In this document: positions 4,895 to 15,114 of the stretch, piece after piece
How positions within the stretch are numbered: the first letter of the stretch is position 1
How the letters are laid out: every line of letters begins with the position of its first letter
DNA from: Bacteroidales bacterium
Lineage (GTDB): Bacteria > Bacteroidota > Bacteroidia > Bacteroidales > Paludibacteraceae
Assembly (NCBI GenBank): GCA_015654525.1
Contig: JAATGT010000290.1
Span: forward strand, 1-43,753
DNA: 43,753 nucleotides
Direction of reading: 5' to 3'
Translations under genes and position numbers: made by a program
Notes under the pieces: generated by a model
Databases searched by the model: none
Seen by the model: the letters and a program-made list of their open reading frames with translations, nothing else
Told to the model about the DNA's origin: nothing

Positions 4895-5901
4895 TTATTG
4901 ATTCATTGATCATAGAAGACAATCATATTGACCACATTATCGCAAGATACCTCGTAAATGAAGCATCTCAGGAAGACTTGCTTTTACTTCGCGAGTGGAT
5001 GGATCAGTCGCCTGACAATACAAGATATGTTGAAAGTATCCGGTTATTGTACGACAATGCCCTTGCGTCACATTCTCCCGCTATAGTAAATACTGACAAA
5101 GCATGGGAAAAGGTGAAGTCAAAACTGAATCTGCAAGAACAAACTACGGCTCCGACAAAAAGCAGATTCTATATGTTCCAATCAAGAAACCTGACAAGAG
5201 TCGCTGCTGTCTTTGCGCTGATTATGGGTATTTCATTGGTATTCTATTATCTCTCTACCCCAGATATAATACGTTACAATCTGACCTCATCCAATAGCCC
5301 TGTGAGTAAAATCGTTGCCGGAAACATTCATGTTTGTTTGAACCGAAAAACAACCCTTGCAGTGGTCGAGAGCAAAAAGAAAAAGACACGGGAATTGCAA
5401 CTATCAGGCGAAGCATTTATTCAGGTAACACACTCAACAAACACACAGTTGATTGTTAAGGCCGGAGAAACATTGATAAAGGATATAGGGACCTCTTTTA
5501 ATGTGAAAGCAAATCCGGGAAGCTCCACCATCGAAGTATTTGTAGAATCCGGAGGAGTTTCCTTTTTTACCGACAGTCAATCCGGCATTAAGCTTACTAA
5601 AGGAGAAACAGGTATTTTTGATAAACAGACAAAAGCTTTTCGCATTTATAAGATTTTTAATCCGAACGTGAACTCATACAAGACTCACAAATTTGTTTTT
5701 GTCAATACACCATTATCGGAAGCTGTAAAAGAGATTAATGCTGTTTATCCTAAGGCCATTATTCTTGGCGATTCTTCCATTGCAAACCGAACGTTAAGTG
5801 TTACATTCGACAATGAACGAATTGAAGCTATTGCCGATATTATGTCGGAAACCTTAGGGTTGAAAGTTTCGCCATCCGGCAACGGATACATTTTACGTTG
5901 A
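4870..5901 (+). CDS. FecR-family anti-sigma factor
   Basis: 343 aa; N-terminal RYLVNEASQEDLLLLREWMDQSPDN, single TM, FecR segment (GEAFIQVTHSTNTQLIVKAGETLIKDIGTSFNVKANPGSSTIEVFVESGGVSF), DUF4974-like C-terminus; overlaps the sigma gene; exact start uncertain. Confidence 0.92.
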   Translation: MAIIYSQLIIDSLIIEDNHIDHIIARYLVNEASQEDLLLLREWMDQSPDNTRYVESIRLLYDNALASHSPAIVNTDKAWEKVKSKLNLQEQTTAPTKSRFYMFQSRNLTRVAAVFALIMGISLVFYYLSTPDIIRYNLTSSNSPVSKIVAGNIHVCLNRKTTLAVVESKKKKTRELQLSGEAFIQVTHSTNTQLIVKAGETLIKDIGTSFNVKANPGSSTIEVFVESGGVSFFTDSQSGIKLTKGETGIFDKQTKAFRIYKIFNPNVNSYKTHKFVFVNTPLSEAVKEINAVYPKAIILGDSSIANRTLSVTFDNERIEAIADIMSETLGLKVSPSGNGYILR

Positions 5902-7850
5902 TTAATAAAATGCAGATTAATAAACCTACAAGCAAGATATTTATTCTTTCGTTTTTTTTGTTCTTCTTTCTTTCGCTGCAAGCACAGTCTGTATCAATTC
6001 CTCTTTTGGAACGAAAAGTCTCACTTACAGCTATCAGGCAACCGACTGAAAAAGTTCTGAAACAAATTTCAGAACAAACGGGTTGTGTCTTTTCGTATAG
6101 CGGTGAATTGATAAATGTTCAGAACAACTCTACCGTTATAGTCACAAACAAACCACTGAAGGTGGTGTTGAATGATCTGTTCGGGAATAAGGTTAGCTAT
6201 AGAACCCGTGGAAAATATATTATTCTCAAAAAGAACAAGGAGACATCCAAACCGGCTGATATCAAAATTCTGGAAGGATATATTTACGATAAACACACCG
6301 GACGGCAAGTAACCGAAGCCAGTATTTATGATAAGAAATCACTTCTTTCAACCACTACGAATCAATATGGGTACTTCCGCATTGAAGTACCGCAATCACA
6401 ACTTACATCCAACTTATGCATCAGTAAAGCAGGTTATTCCGACACCTTGCTATTATCTTCTATGCTTGATTCATCCAGAAAAATGATGGAAGTGTCTTTA
6501 AGTACCAACGATGCAAAACGGGAACCGGGCATTAATTTTAAAAAATTTCTACCCAAATGGCTTTTACCTCATAAAATTGATATCCACTCAACCAATCTGA
6601 CCGACTCTCTTTTCCGCAGAGTGCAATTATCACTTATCCCCATGGTAAATACCAATGCGCTATTAACTGGTAACACCAAGAATGACTGGTCAATCAACCT
6701 CACAGTGGGATATGTATACGCTATCCAAAAATGTGAGTTAGGTGCAGGAATCAATATAGTGCGCACCAATGCCGGAGTTTGTCAATTAGCCGGTGCCGGA
6801 AATATTGTTGGAGCTAACTCATTCGGTTTTCAGGGTGCAGGTGGATTTAATAAAGCTCATAATGCATTCGGATTTCAGGCTGCAGGTGGAGCAAATGTTG
6901 TAAATCAGAATGGAAATATACAAGCTGCAGGAGGAATTAATATAGCAGGAAAAGTCAATGTACAACTTGCAGGAGGAATAAATATTGCAAGGGATACTGT
7001 CATCATTCAGGTTTCGGGGGGAATAAACAAGGTGAAAAACTATGCAAATATACAAGTCACAGGAGGTATTAATATTGCCAAAAATGCGAATGCTCAAATT
7101 GCCGGAGGTATGAATATAGCAAAAGATACTGCCATCGTTCAAGTTTCCGGAGGAATAAACATTGCTCGAAACAGCTCTTTTTTACAAGTTGCTCCCATAA
7201 GAAATCGTGTAATCAATTCATCCAACATCCAAATTGCAGGGTTTGCAAACAAAGCAAAAACAACGAATGTTCAAATTGGATTTTTGAATACTGCTAAACG
7301 GGTAAAAACATTACAGTTGGGAATTGTAAACATAGCCGATTCATGTTCCGGCATACCTATAGGTCTTTTCAGTTATGTTCGGTCGGGTTATCATCATCTG
7401 GAGGTATCAGTGGACGAAGCTTCTTTTGCCTCTCTAACCTATCGGTCTGGAGTACAACGTTTACACTCTTCTTTCTCGGTAGGTATTCTGACAAAGAATC
7501 TAAATGACAAACTATTTATACATGGCTTTGGGATGGGCACCTCGTTAGGCAATCCGCGAAAATGTCTTTTTGATATTGATCTTTCAACGAATCAGTTCGT
7601 CACGTCTCAAAAGTTTTTATCCGATGGAAACCAATTCAAACTTTATACCGGCATTGATCGAAAGATAAGTCGTCACATCTCACTGGCTGCAGGCATATCG
7701 TATAATATGCTGATAAATAAAACGACTTCGGCCTACGATCAATTGATGTATTCTCAGGTTGTTCCTTACACAATCAGTGACCGGATGTTGAACGGTGATA
7801 CCCGGTTGAGGTCCTGGATTGGCGGAAAAGTTGCTTTTCGTTTTATGTAA
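5898..7850 (+). CDS. Outer-surface protein: signal peptide + STN domain + carboxypeptidase-regulatory-like domain + Q-x-[AST]-GG-[IM]-N solenoid repeats + beta-rich C-terminus
   Basis: 650 aa; STN-like segment (VSLTAIRQPTEKVLKQISEQTGCVFSYSGELINVQNNSTVIVTNKPLKVVLNDLF), ILEGYIYDKHTGRQVTEASIYD...GYFRIEVP, then about 12 short repeats of type NIQVTGGINIAKNA; shares overlapping start/stop with FecR ORF. Confidence 0.85.
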   Translation: MINKMQINKPTSKIFILSFFLFFFLSLQAQSVSIPLLERKVSLTAIRQPTEKVLKQISEQTGCVFSYSGELINVQNNSTVIVTNKPLKVVLNDLFGNKVSYRTRGKYIILKKNKETSKPADIKILEGYIYDKHTGRQVTEASIYDKKSLLSTTTNQYGYFRIEVPQSQLTSNLCISKAGYSDTLLLSSMLDSSRKMMEVSLSTNDAKREPGINFKKFLPKWLLPHKIDIHSTNLTDSLFRRVQLSLIPMVNTNALLTGNTKNDWSINLTVGYVYAIQKCELGAGINIVRTNAGVCQLAGAGNIVGANSFGFQGAGGFNKAHNAFGFQAAGGANVVNQNGNIQAAGGINIAGKVNVQLAGGINIARDTVIIQVSGGINKVKNYANIQVTGGINIAKNANAQIAGGMNIAKDTAIVQVSGGINIARNSSFLQVAPIRNRVINSSNIQIAGFANKAKTTNVQIGFLNTAKRVKTLQLGIVNIADSCSGIPIGLFSYVRSGYHHLEVSVDEASFASLTYRSGVQRLHSSFSVGILTKNLNDKLFIHGFGMGTSLGNPRKCLFDIDLSTNQFVTSQKFLSDGNQFKLYTGIDRKISRHISLAAGISYNMLINKTTSAYDQLMYSQVVPYTISDRMLNGDTRLRSWIGGKVAFRFM

Positions 7851-7959: not shown

Positions 7960-8164
7960 TTCGGCGATGTAAAAAGTATCGTTAGATACTTTTACTATGC
8001 GAACTAAGTCTTTTTTCTTTAATAATTTCTATGTGTTCTATTGTGTTAGAAATATATCATTAAATATTTCAAACTACTTAATCCCCACTAAATTTTTTAT
8101 TTTTCTGATAGGGGTAGTTTGTTGTAATCTTGTCTTAGGGTTATACATCAAATCAGAATGCCTT

Positions 8165-9337
8165 ATGAAACTTAAAACAAGTATTATTACTCTTACGCTC
8201 TTTTCCGTTTTTTCTATTGGAAATGGCAACGCTCAAACAAATAGTTCAAAAAACAATATGCCTGACTCTATTCACAGGCAGATGCAAATCTCGTTTCTGC
8301 CCTATATGGGTACAGACGGTACTTCGTCAAGCAAAGGAAGTTATACCATTTCACTGAATATACTGGCAGGTACAATCAATGAGGTTACAGGCTTTGAGAT
8401 GGGAGGACTAATGAATCATGTACATCGCAATGCAGGGAAATGTCAACTGGCAGGCATCGGGAATATTGTTGGTGGCAAAGTAACAGGATTTCAGGGTGCC
8501 GGTATATTTAATCAATCACACTCCATGCAGGGAATACAAGTTGCAGGAGTAATCAACAATGCCGAAACCGTTTCCGGAATACAAATAGCAGGAACCGTAA
8601 ACAATGCACCTAAAGGAAAGTGTATCCAGATTGCCGGAGTTGTCAATAATACCGATTCAACAAGTGTACAGATTGCTGGAATTGCAAACAATGCGAACAG
8701 AATCTCGGGAACTCAAATTGCAGGTATTGTGAATCGTGCCACAGAGATTAATGGCGCACAAATAGCAGGAATAGTCAACATAGCAAAAAAGATAAAAGGT
8801 GTTCAGATTGCTTTTATCAACATTGCCGATTCTTGCCAGGGAACTCCCATTGGAATAATCAACATTATAAGAAACGGTGTACATCAGTTGGAGATATATG
8901 GTGATGAACTGTTCTACAGCAATATTGCATTCCGGTCGGGCACAACTAAGTTCCACACTATACTGACAGCCGGAATACGTCCAAAAGAATTGGAAAACCC
9001 ACTTTGGACCTACGGTTCAGGAATTGGAACTACTTTTTCTTTTTCAAAGAAAACAGCCCTCGATCTTGATGGAACTTTTTCGCATGTAATTAAAAATGGA
9101 AATTTTGGCAATAATTTTTTATACAAAGCCACACTAAGTCTTGATCATAAAATAGGTAAATCAACATCCATTGTTATTGGCTGTAGCTATAACTTTTTAT
9201 CAACCAATACACGAAGTGCCGATTATAATGATGCCTACTCATCCATACTTCATTACTATTTTACCAATCATACCTACAACAACGGATATAATCTAAAAAG
9301 TTGGGCCGGTATAAAAGTAGGGTTACGATTCTTTTAA
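8165..9337 (+). CDS. Solenoid-repeat outer-surface protein, paralogue of the repeat region of 5898..7850
   Basis: Start MKLKTSIITLTLFSVFSIGNGNAQ (signal peptide) preferred over 7997; repeats GIQVAGVINNAETVSGIQIAGTVNNA...; shares cap motif NIADSCxGxPIG and C-terminal SWxGxKVxxRF with the upstream protein. Confidence 0.85.
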   Translation: MKLKTSIITLTLFSVFSIGNGNAQTNSSKNNMPDSIHRQMQISFLPYMGTDGTSSSKGSYTISLNILAGTINEVTGFEMGGLMNHVHRNAGKCQLAGIGNIVGGKVTGFQGAGIFNQSHSMQGIQVAGVINNAETVSGIQIAGTVNNAPKGKCIQIAGVVNNTDSTSVQIAGIANNANRISGTQIAGIVNRATEINGAQIAGIVNIAKKIKGVQIAFINIADSCQGTPIGIINIIRNGVHQLEIYGDELFYSNIAFRSGTTKFHTILTAGIRPKELENPLWTYGSGIGTTFSFSKKTALDLDGTFSHVIKNGNFGNNFLYKATLSLDHKIGKSTSIVIGCSYNFLSTNTRSADYNDAYSSILHYYFTNHTYNNGYNLKSWAGIKVGLRFF

Positions 9338-9380
9338 TAAACCTCCTCCCCCTCGTTTGAAACGAGGGGGAGGAGGTTTA
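9338..9380. terminator. Perfect 21-bp-arm palindrome, probable bidirectional terminator; also a member of the composite repeat family
   Basis: taaacctcctccccctcgttt-g-aaacgagggggaggaggttta, directly after a stop codon and between convergent genes. Confidence 0.85.
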
Positions 9381-9429
9381 TTGTTTAAAACAATATATTC
9401 ATTATCAATAAGAAAGATGGCAATGTATC

Positions 9430-10725
9430 TTATTCTTTTTTCAACCTATAATTAGCAGTGTTCTGATCTTTTATCAGAGAATACCCATCTTTCAGCTCTA
9501 ATGTCCAACCATCTCCACTTATATTTTTATTCTCATTCAACAGAGGAAGGCTTATAGATATTTTACTCCAGTTGGGATTCATAAGTGCCCCATTCTTAAC
9601 TGTAAGTATTCCCCAGTTATCACTAACTCTGATAGTAGGATAAATTGTTCCCTTATCTTCCAGTGGCATAATATTTCGTGGATCAAACGATACATTCATT
9701 TTTTCAAAAACAAGTTCAACATGCGGTTGTACAATAAATTTGGCTTTATAGTCAGCAATCTGTTGTTCATTTCTTTTAGCTCTGATCTCTTCTTCCCTGA
9801 TAATTTCGATTCCTTTGTATTGTTTTAAAATCAAATCAGTAGATTTTTTTAGATCGACCGGCAATGAAATATTAAATGCCTTTATGAAATAATCAGTCAG
9901 GCTTGTTTTAATGGTTACTTCTTTGTTCCAGTATTTCTTAGTGCTCATCAGTAAGTAACCATACACAGGAGTAGTGTAATAAGCAAATGACCGGACAAAT
10001 GTAGGGTTCTTCAAAAAATAATCTATACTTTGTACAAAGTGTTCGGTAAATTGCTTCCGGTTTCGTCCGCCCATCACCACACCTGTATATTCAGCTATAC
10101 CTTCATTCAGTTCCAGTAAGTTTTCAGTTGCCTTAGCCTCGGGATAAATTAAATATCTGTACGCTCTGAAAGTAAAAGCATTGGTTAGATGCATTTTTCG
10201 ATCTTTCTGATTTGTTGCTTGCACTGCATTTTTCAATGCTTCCAGTTCTAAACGCAAATAGATTCTACCCTCTTTCTGGTCGAGATGATTATTCTCGGTA
10301 TTAAATAGCTGAAAACCCAATGACAGCTGACTAACGTGGAATAACTCATGAGCAAGCAAATTTAGCCGTTCCTGCTTATTGGTGGGCAACGGAAGCATAA
10401 TCATAGCCCAGTGTCTGCCATTCCAATCAATTGAAGTATTCGAGACATTAACCTCAGTAGGTAAAGTGCCTACATAAATTTCAGCTGCTTGTTTAAGGGC
10501 ACCAGTACTATCAGGCATATTTGCAACCATTTGTCTTGTATCAGGATCAACAAAAAACATGGGTCCATATAAATCTTTGCCCCATAGTTGTTTCTGTTTC
10601 CCCATCTCAACTTTTATTTCATTGAAATAAGTTGCAATACTATCCTGATAAGTTGGAACTTTCTGCCCAAAAGATGATTGGATAAACATCAAAAGCAATG
10701 TGCTAATGTAAAACTTTCTATTCAT
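9430..10725 (-). CDS. Secreted putative zinc metallopeptidase-like protein
   Basis: 431 aa with signal peptide (MNRKFYISTLLLMFIQSSFGQ) and HExxH motif (LNLLAHELFHVSQ). Confidence 0.65.
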   Translation of the reverse strand: MNRKFYISTLLLMFIQSSFGQKVPTYQDSIATYFNEIKVEMGKQKQLWGKDLYGPMFFVDPDTRQMVANMPDSTGALKQAAEIYVGTLPTEVNVSNTSIDWNGRHWAMIMLPLPTNKQERLNLLAHELFHVSQLSLGFQLFNTENNHLDQKEGRIYLRLELEALKNAVQATNQKDRKMHLTNAFTFRAYRYLIYPEAKATENLLELNEGIAEYTGVVMGGRNRKQFTEHFVQSIDYFLKNPTFVRSFAYYTTPVYGYLLMSTKKYWNKEVTIKTSLTDYFIKAFNISLPVDLKKSTDLILKQYKGIEIIREEEIRAKRNEQQIADYKAKFIVQPHVELVFEKMNVSFDPRNIMPLEDKGTIYPTIRVSDNWGILTVKNGALMNPNWSKISISLPLLNENKNISGDGWTLELKDGYSLIKDQNTANYRLKKE

Positions 10726-10742: not shown

Positions 10743-10957
10743 CCCCCTCGTTTGCAATGAGGGAAAGGTGGTTAATTGTCTAAAACAATGCGGTTTATAA
10801 TCTGCATTAAAAATGCGAAACCAATTACCCCTCGTTACAAACGAAGGGGAGGTGAGTTTGTAGTTTATTGTTTAAACAATGTATTTCGCAGTGCATGTTT
10901 ATATAATCAGCATTGCAAATGCATAACCAGTTGTCCCCTCGTTGCAACAAGGGGGGA
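10743..10957. repeat. Composite hairpin repeat, locus B (three palindromes, two spacers)
   Basis: CCCCTCG palindromes at 10744, 10828 and 10935 separated by spacers containing ATTGTyTAAAACAAT-type and GCATTnnnAATGC hairpins. Confidence 0.85.
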
Positions 10958-12286: not shown

Positions 12287-12401
12287 CCCCCTCGTTACAA
12301 ACGAGGGGTTGGTGGTTCATTGTTTACAACAATGTATTTTATATATAATCAGCATTACAAATGCAAAACCAGTTACCCCTCGTTACAAACGAGGGGGAGG
12401 A
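12287..12401. repeat. Composite hairpin repeat, locus C (two palindromes, one spacer)
   Basis: ccccctcgttacaaacgagggg at 12287 and cccctcgttacaaacgaggggg at 12376, period 88 bp, with conserved spacer hairpins. Confidence 0.88.
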
Positions 12402-13379: not shown

Positions 13380-13755
13380 CCCCCTCGTTTGCAACGAGGG
13401 GGTTGTGGTTCATTGTTTGTAACAATGTAATTTTATAATCAGCATTAAAAATGCAGAACCAGTTACCCCTCGTTTACAAACGAAGGGGAAGATTGTGGTT
13501 CATTGCTTGCAACAATACAGTTTATAATCTGCATTAAAAATGCAGAACCAGTTAGCCCCTCGTTGCAAACGAGGGGTTGGTGGTTCATTGTTTGCAACAA
13601 TGTGTTTTATAATCTGCATTAAAAAATGCTTTACCAGTTAGCCCTTGTTTACAAACGAGGGGGGCAGGATTGTGATTTATTGTTTGTAACAATGCGGTTT
13701 ATAATTTGCATTATAAATGCTTTACCAGTTACCCCCTCGTTACAAACGAGGGGGA
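13380..13755. repeat. Composite hairpin repeat array, locus E (five palindromes, four conserved spacers)
   Basis: Palindromes start near 13381, 13466, 13556, 13641 and 13733 (periods 85, 90, 85, 92 bp); each spacer holds ATTGyTTGyAACAAT and GCATTnnnAATGC hairpins. Confidence 0.93.
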
Positions 13756-14619: not shown

Positions 14620-15114
14620 CTAAAATAAGATTTTCTTATTCCACTTAAAAATGTTTAGTTTATCAAATCCTTTTTTCAATTTATAATATGATATTTTTGA
14701 TTTACCATATAATAAATTCAATTTATAACATGATATTTTTGATTTATAATACAATAAATTGAATTTATAATATGATATTTTCGATTTATAATGTGATAAA
14801 TTGAATCTATAACATGATGTTTTTGATTTATAATACAATAAATTGAATTTATAATATGATATTTTCGATTTATAATGTGATAAATTGAATCTATAACATG
14901 ATATTTTCGATTTATAATATGATAAATTCTGATTCATGTATGTAAGAAATCTTGTAACAGACCTACAAAATTGTTTCACAATCCTTATTGCTTCTTTATT
15001 ATTTGATAAATTGAATATCGCAGGTGTGATACGACATTTCAGCTTGGTTACAGAGTTCAAAGAGCGTCTTATTTTTATGATGGCAAAATAAATGGATTGC
15101 AAGAAATTTATCAA
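14620..15114 (-). CDS. Possible protein with 7-residue tandem repeats (NLLYYKS-KISYYKF), coding status uncertain
   Basis: 164-aa open frame; the 21-bp repeat keeps the frame open over the array (KISCYRF NLSHYKS KISYYKF NLLYYKS ...). Confidence 0.35.
   Translation of the reverse strand: MINFLQSIYFAIIKIRRSLNSVTKLKCRITPAIFNLSNNKEAIRIVKQFCRSVTRFLTYMNQNLSYYKSKISCYRFNLSHYKSKISYYKFNLLYYKSKTSCYRFNLSHYKSKISYYKFNLLYYKSKISCYKLNLLYGKSKISYYKLKKGFDKLNIFKWNKKILF
14675..14926. repeat. Hierarchical tandem repeat: three 84-bp copies built of 42-bp and 21-bp subunits
   Basis: 84-mers at 14675-14758, 14759-14842 and 14843-14926; 42-bp subunit ttgaatttataatatgatattttcgatttataatgtgataaa. Confidence 0.93.

What the first reader, a model, noticed from the sequence alone, without database searches (positions are those of the whole stretch)
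13380..13755. Array of a composite three-hairpin repeat (palindrome - H1 - H2 - palindrome), four spacers
The repeat consists of a 21-23 bp palindrome (CCCCTCGTTnCAAACGAGGGG), then H1 (cATTGTTTGyAACAATg), then H2 (GCATTnnnAATGC), then the next palindrome. Periods are 85, 90, 85 and 92 bp. Variation sits mainly in the 2-4-nt loops: palindrome loops tgc/ac/gca/aca, H1 loops tgt/tgc/tac, H2 loops aaa/ata. Stems are mostly kept, with exceptions such as the bulged palindrome at 13466 and a G-T pair at 13641. In the first two spacers TGGTTC (13406-13411, 13496-13501) also pairs with GAACCA (13456-13461, 13545-13550), closing H1 and H2 into a possible multibranch structure. The pattern suggests selection on structure in RNA or single-stranded DNA. 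The repeat resembles a REP/BIME element, but the three-hairpin unit matches no family I can name. I could not check novelty.
Basis: partly seen in the sequence, partly recalled or inferred. Interest (0 to 1): 0.75.

Follow-up and report, generated by a model that had tools for sequence, protein, structure and literature searches.

The report
Two-hairpin REPIN array in Bacteroidota
The repeat is a tandem cluster of small "parasitic" DNA elements that fold into hairpins and almost certainly depend on a single-strand-cutting transposase (a RAYT) found in related bacteria; its recognition site is a pair of hairpins at a fixed spacing rather than the single hairpin known from E. coli and Pseudomonas.

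Summary
The array is real: four units at 13380-13754, three more units and one half unit at 9.3-12.4 kb. The units are not "three-hairpin" repeats. Each is a head-to-head pair of one 47-nt module: outer hairpin P (CCCCTCGTTTGnAACGAGGGG), a 9-nt linker carrying TGGT, and an inner hairpin whose stem varies freely but stays paired (H1 on one arm, H2 on the other). Adjacent units share P.

A covariance model finds 38 modules in the window's genome, including 14 facing pairs, and about 50 in some relatives. H1 shows strong compensatory change. The palindrome occurs only in Bacteroidota in the capped genome scan. In relatives it directly flanks genes for REP-associated tyrosine transposases of TnpAREP subclass 2.6 (RAYT group 5); in the same genus all five full-length cognate genes lie between inward-facing modules. 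The window's own genome holds only weak fragments.

Other subclass 2.6 genes, flanked by unrelated sequences, also carry double hairpins 27-32 nt apart (32/130 flanks, 0.05 expected). The element's edge is a conserved [C/A]T dinucleotide; CT is where known TnpAREP enzymes cut.

Best reading: a REPIN family, now orphaned here, of the "atypical" Bacteroidota RAYT group, with a bipartite two-hairpin recognition site. New variant of a known kind. Mobilisation itself is inferred.

The parts
13380..13754 (+). Tandem array of four REPIN-like units sharing five outer palindromes P
13381..13487 (+). Unit 1: left module 13381-13427 (+), right module 13440-13487 (-)
   Evidence: R1 hits 69.4 and 46.8 bits
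13466..13576 (+). Unit 2: left module 13466-13517 (+), right module 13529-13576 (-)
   Evidence: R1 hits 31.1 and 57.5 bits
13556..13662 (+). Unit 3: left module 13556-13602 (+), right module 13614-13662 (-)
   Evidence: R1 hits 56.3 and 29.6 bits
13643..13753 (+). Unit 4: left module 13643-13694 (+, TGGT decayed to TGAT), right module 13706-13753 (-)
   Evidence: R1 hits 19.8 and 52.4 bits
12288..12396 (+). Separate complete unit (modules 12288-12334 + and 12350-12396 -)
   Evidence: 54.6 and 63.0 bits
10744..10848 (+). Complete unit (modules 10744-10790 + and 10802-10848 -), first of a two-unit array
10828..10954 (+). Second unit of that array, partly decayed (modules 10828-10881 + and 10908-10954 -)
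9349..9395 (+). Solitary module (P + inner hairpin), between convergent genes
   Evidence: 55.9 bits
13235..13253 (+). Lone decayed palindrome, about 130 bp before the array
   Evidence: 16.1 bits
13406..13409 (+). Conserved linker motif TGGT of unit 1, left arm, 5' of the inner hairpin
   Evidence: invariant columns 26-29 of alignment A4, but TGGT was used to select A4; independent support: inside 88 vs outside 13 of 209
13410..13427 (+). Inner hairpin H1 of unit 1 (CATTGTTTGTAACAATG) with preceding base
   Evidence: covariation of the homologous helix

Best explanation
This is an array of REPINs (inverted pairs of REP sequences, non-autonomous mobile DNA) belonging to the Bacteroidota-specific RAYT group 5 / TnpAREP subclass 2.6. 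Each REP here is a two-hairpin module: an outer palindrome P with conserved stem and apex (CTCGTTTGnAAC), a 9-nt linker with TGGT, and an inner hairpin with the same GTTTGnAAC apex but a freely varying, nearly always complementary stem, about 28 nt centre to centre. Two modules face each other to make a unit of about 110 bp whose edges are a conserved [C/A]T-NCC. Proposed mechanism: when the region is single-stranded (for example on the lagging-strand template), the hairpins fold, a HUH/tyrosine RAYT supplied in trans recognises the P-linker-inner-hairpin pair, cuts at the CT edge, and joins or copies the unit elsewhere; serial insertion or recombination at P gives tandem arrays that share P. 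Shown here: anatomy, covariation, copy number, intergenic location, physical and phylogenetic linkage to the RAYT, edge dinucleotide. Inferred: binding, cutting, transposition, array growth. The window's genome lacks a full cognate RAYT in its assembly (89% complete), so its copies are probably relics or depend on a gene in the missing part.
For: (1) RAYT-like ORFs lie directly between or beside the palindromes in about 18 loci from different Bacteroidota. Four were scanned and all exceed the NCBIfam REP_Tyr_transpos cut-off (86-101 bits vs 80); they carry the HUH (NHxH) and YIHxNP tyrosine motifs matching subclass 2.6. E. coli TnpAREP bound to REP (4er8) is the best sequence match in the PDB and the best fold match. 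(2) In the same genus all five full-length cognate RAYTs (345-360 bits) are flanked on both sides by R1 modules pointing inward. (3) Tree of 91 RAYTs: the CCTCGTT-flanked label needs 3 changes vs 13.3 in shuffles, 0/500. (4) Genomes with the exact palindrome carry a subclass 2.6 RAYT more often: 7/11 vs 11/90, p=4e-4. (5) H1 covariation score 0.208 vs 0.077 shuffled and 0.034-0.091 slid; two pairs have 22-24 compensatory changes among 50 sequences chosen without looking at H1. (6) Inside flanks of P carry a stem of 6 bp or more in 112/209 vs 26/209 outside. (7) Modules face each other: 14 units in the own genome, 15 of 21 adjacent pairs elsewhere. (8) Palindromes lie in ORFs in 8/100 cases vs 79% of random sites. 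(9) Element edge: T at -4 in 82/85 and C/A at -5 in 84/85, no information at -6; the same edge is seen in about 20 near-identical copies of one genome. TnpAREP enzymes cut at CT beside the REP (PMC8266576).
Against: No intact cognate RAYT in the window's own assembly, only weak fragments. No direct evidence of movement: no empty/filled site pair could be compared. Canonical REPs carry GT[AG]G at the 5' foot, absent here (subclass 2.6 is known to lack it). Adjacent-pair orientation is 15 facing vs 6 otherwise, so not absolute. The AlphaFold model is moderate (pLDDT 72; the C-terminal segment 153-176 is below 50).
Confidence: 0.86

Rival explanations
1. A structured non-coding RNA or RNA regulator whose hairpins act after transcription.
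For: Strong covariation and very stable folds are what an RNA would also show; REP sequences elsewhere do affect mRNA stability and termination.
Against: No Rfam family reaches threshold, and permissive matches are all far below gathering scores. Wobble pairs make up only 5 of 235 paired cells in the inner five H1 pairs, low for RNA. Both strands fold about equally well. Units sit between convergent genes (9349) as well as antisense between tandem genes. The element tracks a DNA transposase.
Confidence: 0.05
2. Ends or miniature derivatives (MITEs) of an ordinary IS200/IS605 insertion sequence that moves as a unit.
For: The transposase belongs to the same Y1 HUH superfamily (PF01797); the RAYT gene sits between facing modules like an IS between its ends.
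Against: The enzymes score as REP_Tyr_transpos and well below the IS200 cut-off (22-24 vs 55 bits). Typically one or two full cognate genes per genome but tens of modules. Modules are head-to-head inverted, whereas IS200/IS605 ends are not inverted repeats (established knowledge).
Confidence: 0.05
3. A host-domesticated structural element (attenuator, nucleoid or supercoiling site) kept for cellular benefit, RAYT association being historical.
For: RAYTs are often single-copy and considered domesticated; copies are intergenic and persist in genomes without a cognate gene (G000; G001).
Against: Copy number and presence vary widely between species of one genus (0 to 37 modules), and the flanking genes are ordinary, the one tested being rare in the genus, which looks like selfish turnover.
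Confidence: 0.04

Closest known systems
REP/REPIN-RAYT systems (E. coli BIMEs, Pseudomonas GI-GIII REPINs; RAYT groups 2 and 3)
   Same: Intergenic palindromes in inverted pairs; a Y1 HUH transposase gene per family flanked by its own repeat; CT at the element edge; compensatory changes in hairpins (PMC3116915, PMC8266576).
   Different: Each REP is two hairpins at fixed spacing with a TGGT linker, not one hairpin; no GTAG/GTGG at the 5' foot; tens rather than hundreds of copies; units share outer hairpins in tandem arrays.
TnpAREP subclass 2.6 = RAYT group 5 (Quentin et al. 2018, PMC6006769)
   Same: Same protein group by motifs (NH[LIV]H, WQ, YIHxNP), length and phylum; the paper reports flanking 'atypical secondary structures' with copies elsewhere in the genome.
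   Different: The main text gives no anatomy of those structures; the two-hairpin module, its 27-32 nt spacing, head-to-head pairing, CT edge and covariation are described here. Its supplementary table could not be read.
IS200/IS605 (IS608, ISDra2) subterminal hairpins
   Same: Y1 HUH enzyme, single-strand hairpin recognition; next-best structural matches after 4er8.
   Different: Not an autonomous multi-copy IS; modules inverted rather than same-strand ends.

Membership tests
REP/REPIN of a RAYT | Short hairpin-forming palindrome, many dispersed intergenic copies | tested here: met
   38 modules at E<=0.01 in own genome; 8/100 in ORFs vs 79% random
REP/REPIN of a RAYT | Copies arranged as inverted doublets | tested here: met
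   14 facing pairs in own genome; 15 of 21 adjacent pairs elsewhere, p=1e-5 vs 25%
REP/REPIN of a RAYT | A RAYT gene flanked by the same repeat | tested here: met
   In relatives. Not in the window's own assembly
REP/REPIN of a RAYT | Repeat sequence tracks RAYT clade | tested here: met
   3 changes on tree vs 13.3 shuffled
REP/REPIN of a RAYT | GT[AG]G tetranucleotide at 5' foot of the hairpin (canonical REP) | tested here: not met
   5' foot is [C/A]T-NCC; subclass 2.6 is reported to lack it, so it is not a canonical REP
REP/REPIN of a RAYT | Bound, cut and moved by the RAYT | not testable with these tools
   needs biochemistry
TnpAREP subclass 2.6 / RAYT group 5 (the enzyme) | HUH NH[LIV]H, WQ, YIH[QN]NP motifs, about 180 aa, Bacteroidetes | tested here: met
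   alignment (N61 H62 x H64, W125, Y146 x H148 x N150); most clade-1 members have E instead of Q/N (YIHENP)
IS200/IS605 insertion sequence | Transposase over the IS200 family cut-off and IS moving as a unit | tested here: not met
   22-24 bits vs cut-off 55; one or two cognate genes per genome
Rfam RNA family | Match above gathering score | tested here: not met
Integron attC sites | attC core sites and a tyrosine integrase IntI | not tested
   no integrase search was run; RAYT linkage made it a low priority

The most novel reading that the evidence does not exclude
RAYT group 5 enzymes use a bipartite recognition site: two hairpins at a fixed 27-32 nt spacing, the outer one fixed in sequence and the inner one fixed mainly in shape and apex, kept across a whole phylum while the hairpin sequences themselves turned over completely between RAYT clades. 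The 21-aa insertion reported for this subclass would read the second hairpin. That would be a new mode of substrate recognition for Y1 HUH transposases and would explain why their repeats were called atypical.
Probability: 0.5. Interest if true: 0.65.

Novelty: new variant of a known kind. Interest (0 to 1): 0.52.

Why it matters
RAYT/REPIN systems are known in detail only from Proteobacteria, where one hairpin plus GTAG is recognised. The Bacteroidota group was on record only as flanked by unspecified "atypical" structures. A defined two-hairpin module with covariation, a fixed spacing, a CT edge and named cognate enzymes makes its recognition rule directly testable with short oligonucleotides, and gives a covariance model with which REPINs can be mapped across this phylum.

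Tried and rejected
The four intact Y1 transposases of the window's genome (L019-L022) were first suspected as partners. None has the CCTCGTT palindrome nearby, they carry other palindromes, and they have the Y---Q--HH motif of subclass 1.2, so they were rejected as cognate. Rfam ncRNA families: none. Empty-site comparison through the neighbouring gene at 9430-10725: only two orthologues in 40 genomes of the genus and no synteny around them. The viral-contig scan gave no answer from the machine. TGGT/ACCA as a closing stem of a multibranch fold: not independent evidence, since inverted modules make it complementary by construction. GTAG at the element's right end in some copies is on the 3' side of the hairpin, opposite to canonical REPs, and is better read as the complement of the CT(A/C)C edge.

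Full report
OBSERVATION. The array is as described: five palindromes at 13380-13754 with H1 and H2 in each of four spacers. Single-strand folds are 4-8 standard deviations below shuffles, and the palindrome is about eight times more frequent in the window than expected. More units lie at 10744-10954 (two), 12288-12396 (one) and a half unit at 9349. They lie in gaps between ordinary chromosomal genes: a repeat-rich predicted outer-membrane-type protein, a hypothetical protein, an MFS transporter, a hypothetical protein and an fn3 protein.

ANATOMY. Other arrays in the same genome (contigs C47, C225, C237) have the same order of hairpins with different H1 and H2 sequences. On its inner side the palindrome is followed at a constant offset by TGGT and then by a hairpin with apex GTTTGnAAC: 112 of 209 inner flanks have a stem of 6 bp or more against 26 outer flanks and 12 shuffled; TGGT is in 88 vs 13. 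In 68 modules chosen by P and TGGT only, TGGT is at the same offset in 59, and 50 of them align without a gap over 47 nt. The inner stem covaries: all seven pairs show changes on both sides, two of them in 22-24 of 50 sequences; the covariation score is 0.208 against 0.077 +/- 0.009 shuffled and at most 0.091 when slid. Wobble pairs are only 5 of 235 paired cells in the inner five pairs, which favours DNA-level selection.

UNITS ARE INVERTED PAIRS. A covariance model (R1) finds a plus-strand module followed by a minus-strand module in every window unit: 13381/13440, 13466/13529, 13556/13614, 13643/13706, 12288/12350, 10744/10802, 10828/10908. H2 is thus the inner hairpin of the opposite module. 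The own genome has 38 modules at E<=0.01 and 14 facing pairs, counted by hand from the full table. Elsewhere 15 of 21 adjacent palindromes face each other. This is the REPIN layout (PMC3116915). In tandem arrays neighbouring units share P.

EDGES. In 85 modules from different genomes, information outside P ends sharply at -5/-4 with [C/A]T (C 64, A 20; T 82) and is zero at -6. About 20 near-identical copies in one related genome (G020) show the same border in different surroundings. CT beside the hairpin is the cleavage dinucleotide of TnpAREP enzymes (PMC8266576).

THE PARTNER. A profile from the genome's own Y1 transposases, then iterated, found RAYT-like ORFs beside or between the palindromes. 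Four scanned by NCBIfam are REP_Tyr_transpos at 86-101 bits (cut-off 80); Pfam gives Y1_Tnp. Motifs, length and phylum match TnpAREP subclass 2.6 = RAYT group 5, whose genes are reported as flanked by 'atypical secondary structures' without GT[AG]G. The E. coli TnpAREP structure 4er8 is the best PDB match by sequence (E 6e-4) and by fold (E 1e-4; model pLDDT 72). In the window's genus (one member, G102, coincides by contig number and coordinates with a MAG deposited as Paludibacter jiangxiensis, locus L108) all five full-length cognate RAYTs lie between inward-facing modules: G102:C307, G102:C46, G101:C24, G117:C41, G125:C43. On a tree of 91 RAYTs, being flanked by CCTCGTT needs 3 changes against 13.3 by chance. 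Across 101 genomes of the family, 7 of 11 with the exact palindrome and 11 of 90 without it carry such a RAYT (p 4e-4). The window's genome has only weak fragments.

GENERALITY. Next to subclass 2.6 RAYTs from other genera, with entirely different palindromes (for example CGTAGGCTCCGCCTACG followed 29.5 nt on by GGAAAGCTCCTGCTTTCC in L192; CGCGTCTGTGACGCG and GCGCGTCTCTGACGCGC 28 nt apart in L280), hairpin pairs again sit 27-32 nt apart: 32 of 130 flanks against 0.05 expected, with a sharp peak at that distance. Only a minority of flanks pass this strict perfect-stem test, and several of these RAYTs are close relatives, so the figure is not a count of independent events.

MECHANISM. Supported: element anatomy, inversion, edges, RAYT linkage. 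Inferred: RAYT in trans binds two hairpins on single-stranded DNA, cuts at CT, and moves the unit; arrays grow through shared P by insertion or recombination. The idea that the second hairpin is read by the 21-aa insertion of this subclass is a guess from PMC6006769's remark that the insertion lies near the REP-recognition region.

VERDICT. A REPIN family of a known but little-described RAYT group, with a two-hairpin recognition module that I did not find described in the papers I could search; supplementary tables and Bertels 2017 could not be read, so novelty of the anatomy is not certain.

Noticed in passing
L019 (C58), L020 (C204), L021 (C355), L022 (C283): Four intact Y1 transposases of the window's genome carry the Y---Q--HH motif of TnpAY1 subclass 1.2, and at least three (L019, L020, L022) sit inside dense arrays of their own palindromes; in L019 TTTCTATGG/CCATAGAAA arms flank palindromes, and in L020 a 73-bp unit repeats. 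PMC6006769 describes subclass 1.2 as generally without typical terminal IS200 secondary structures.
   Followed up: partly
L053 1489-1599, 2909-3019, 3896-4006 (contig C270): Three direct copies of a 111-bp sequence beginning in a P+inner-hairpin module separate small gene pairs that look, by eye, like toxin-antitoxin modules (RelE/ParE-like; nucleotidyltransferase + HEPN-like), a cassette-like arrangement.
   Followed up: partly
window 14673-14928: AT-rich 21/42/84-bp tandem repeat of 250 bp inside a small predicted ORF (14620-15114, no Pfam family).
   Followed up: no
window 6910-7161: 132-bp tandem repeat coding for a GGINIA-type repeat protein (5898-7850), with a related gene at 7997-9337.
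   Followed up: no
L186 (G020 C31): Highly uniform REPIN copies (27 exact palindromes) in a genome with an intact-looking cognate RAYT flanked by units: looks like a recently active system and a good experimental source.
   Followed up: partly
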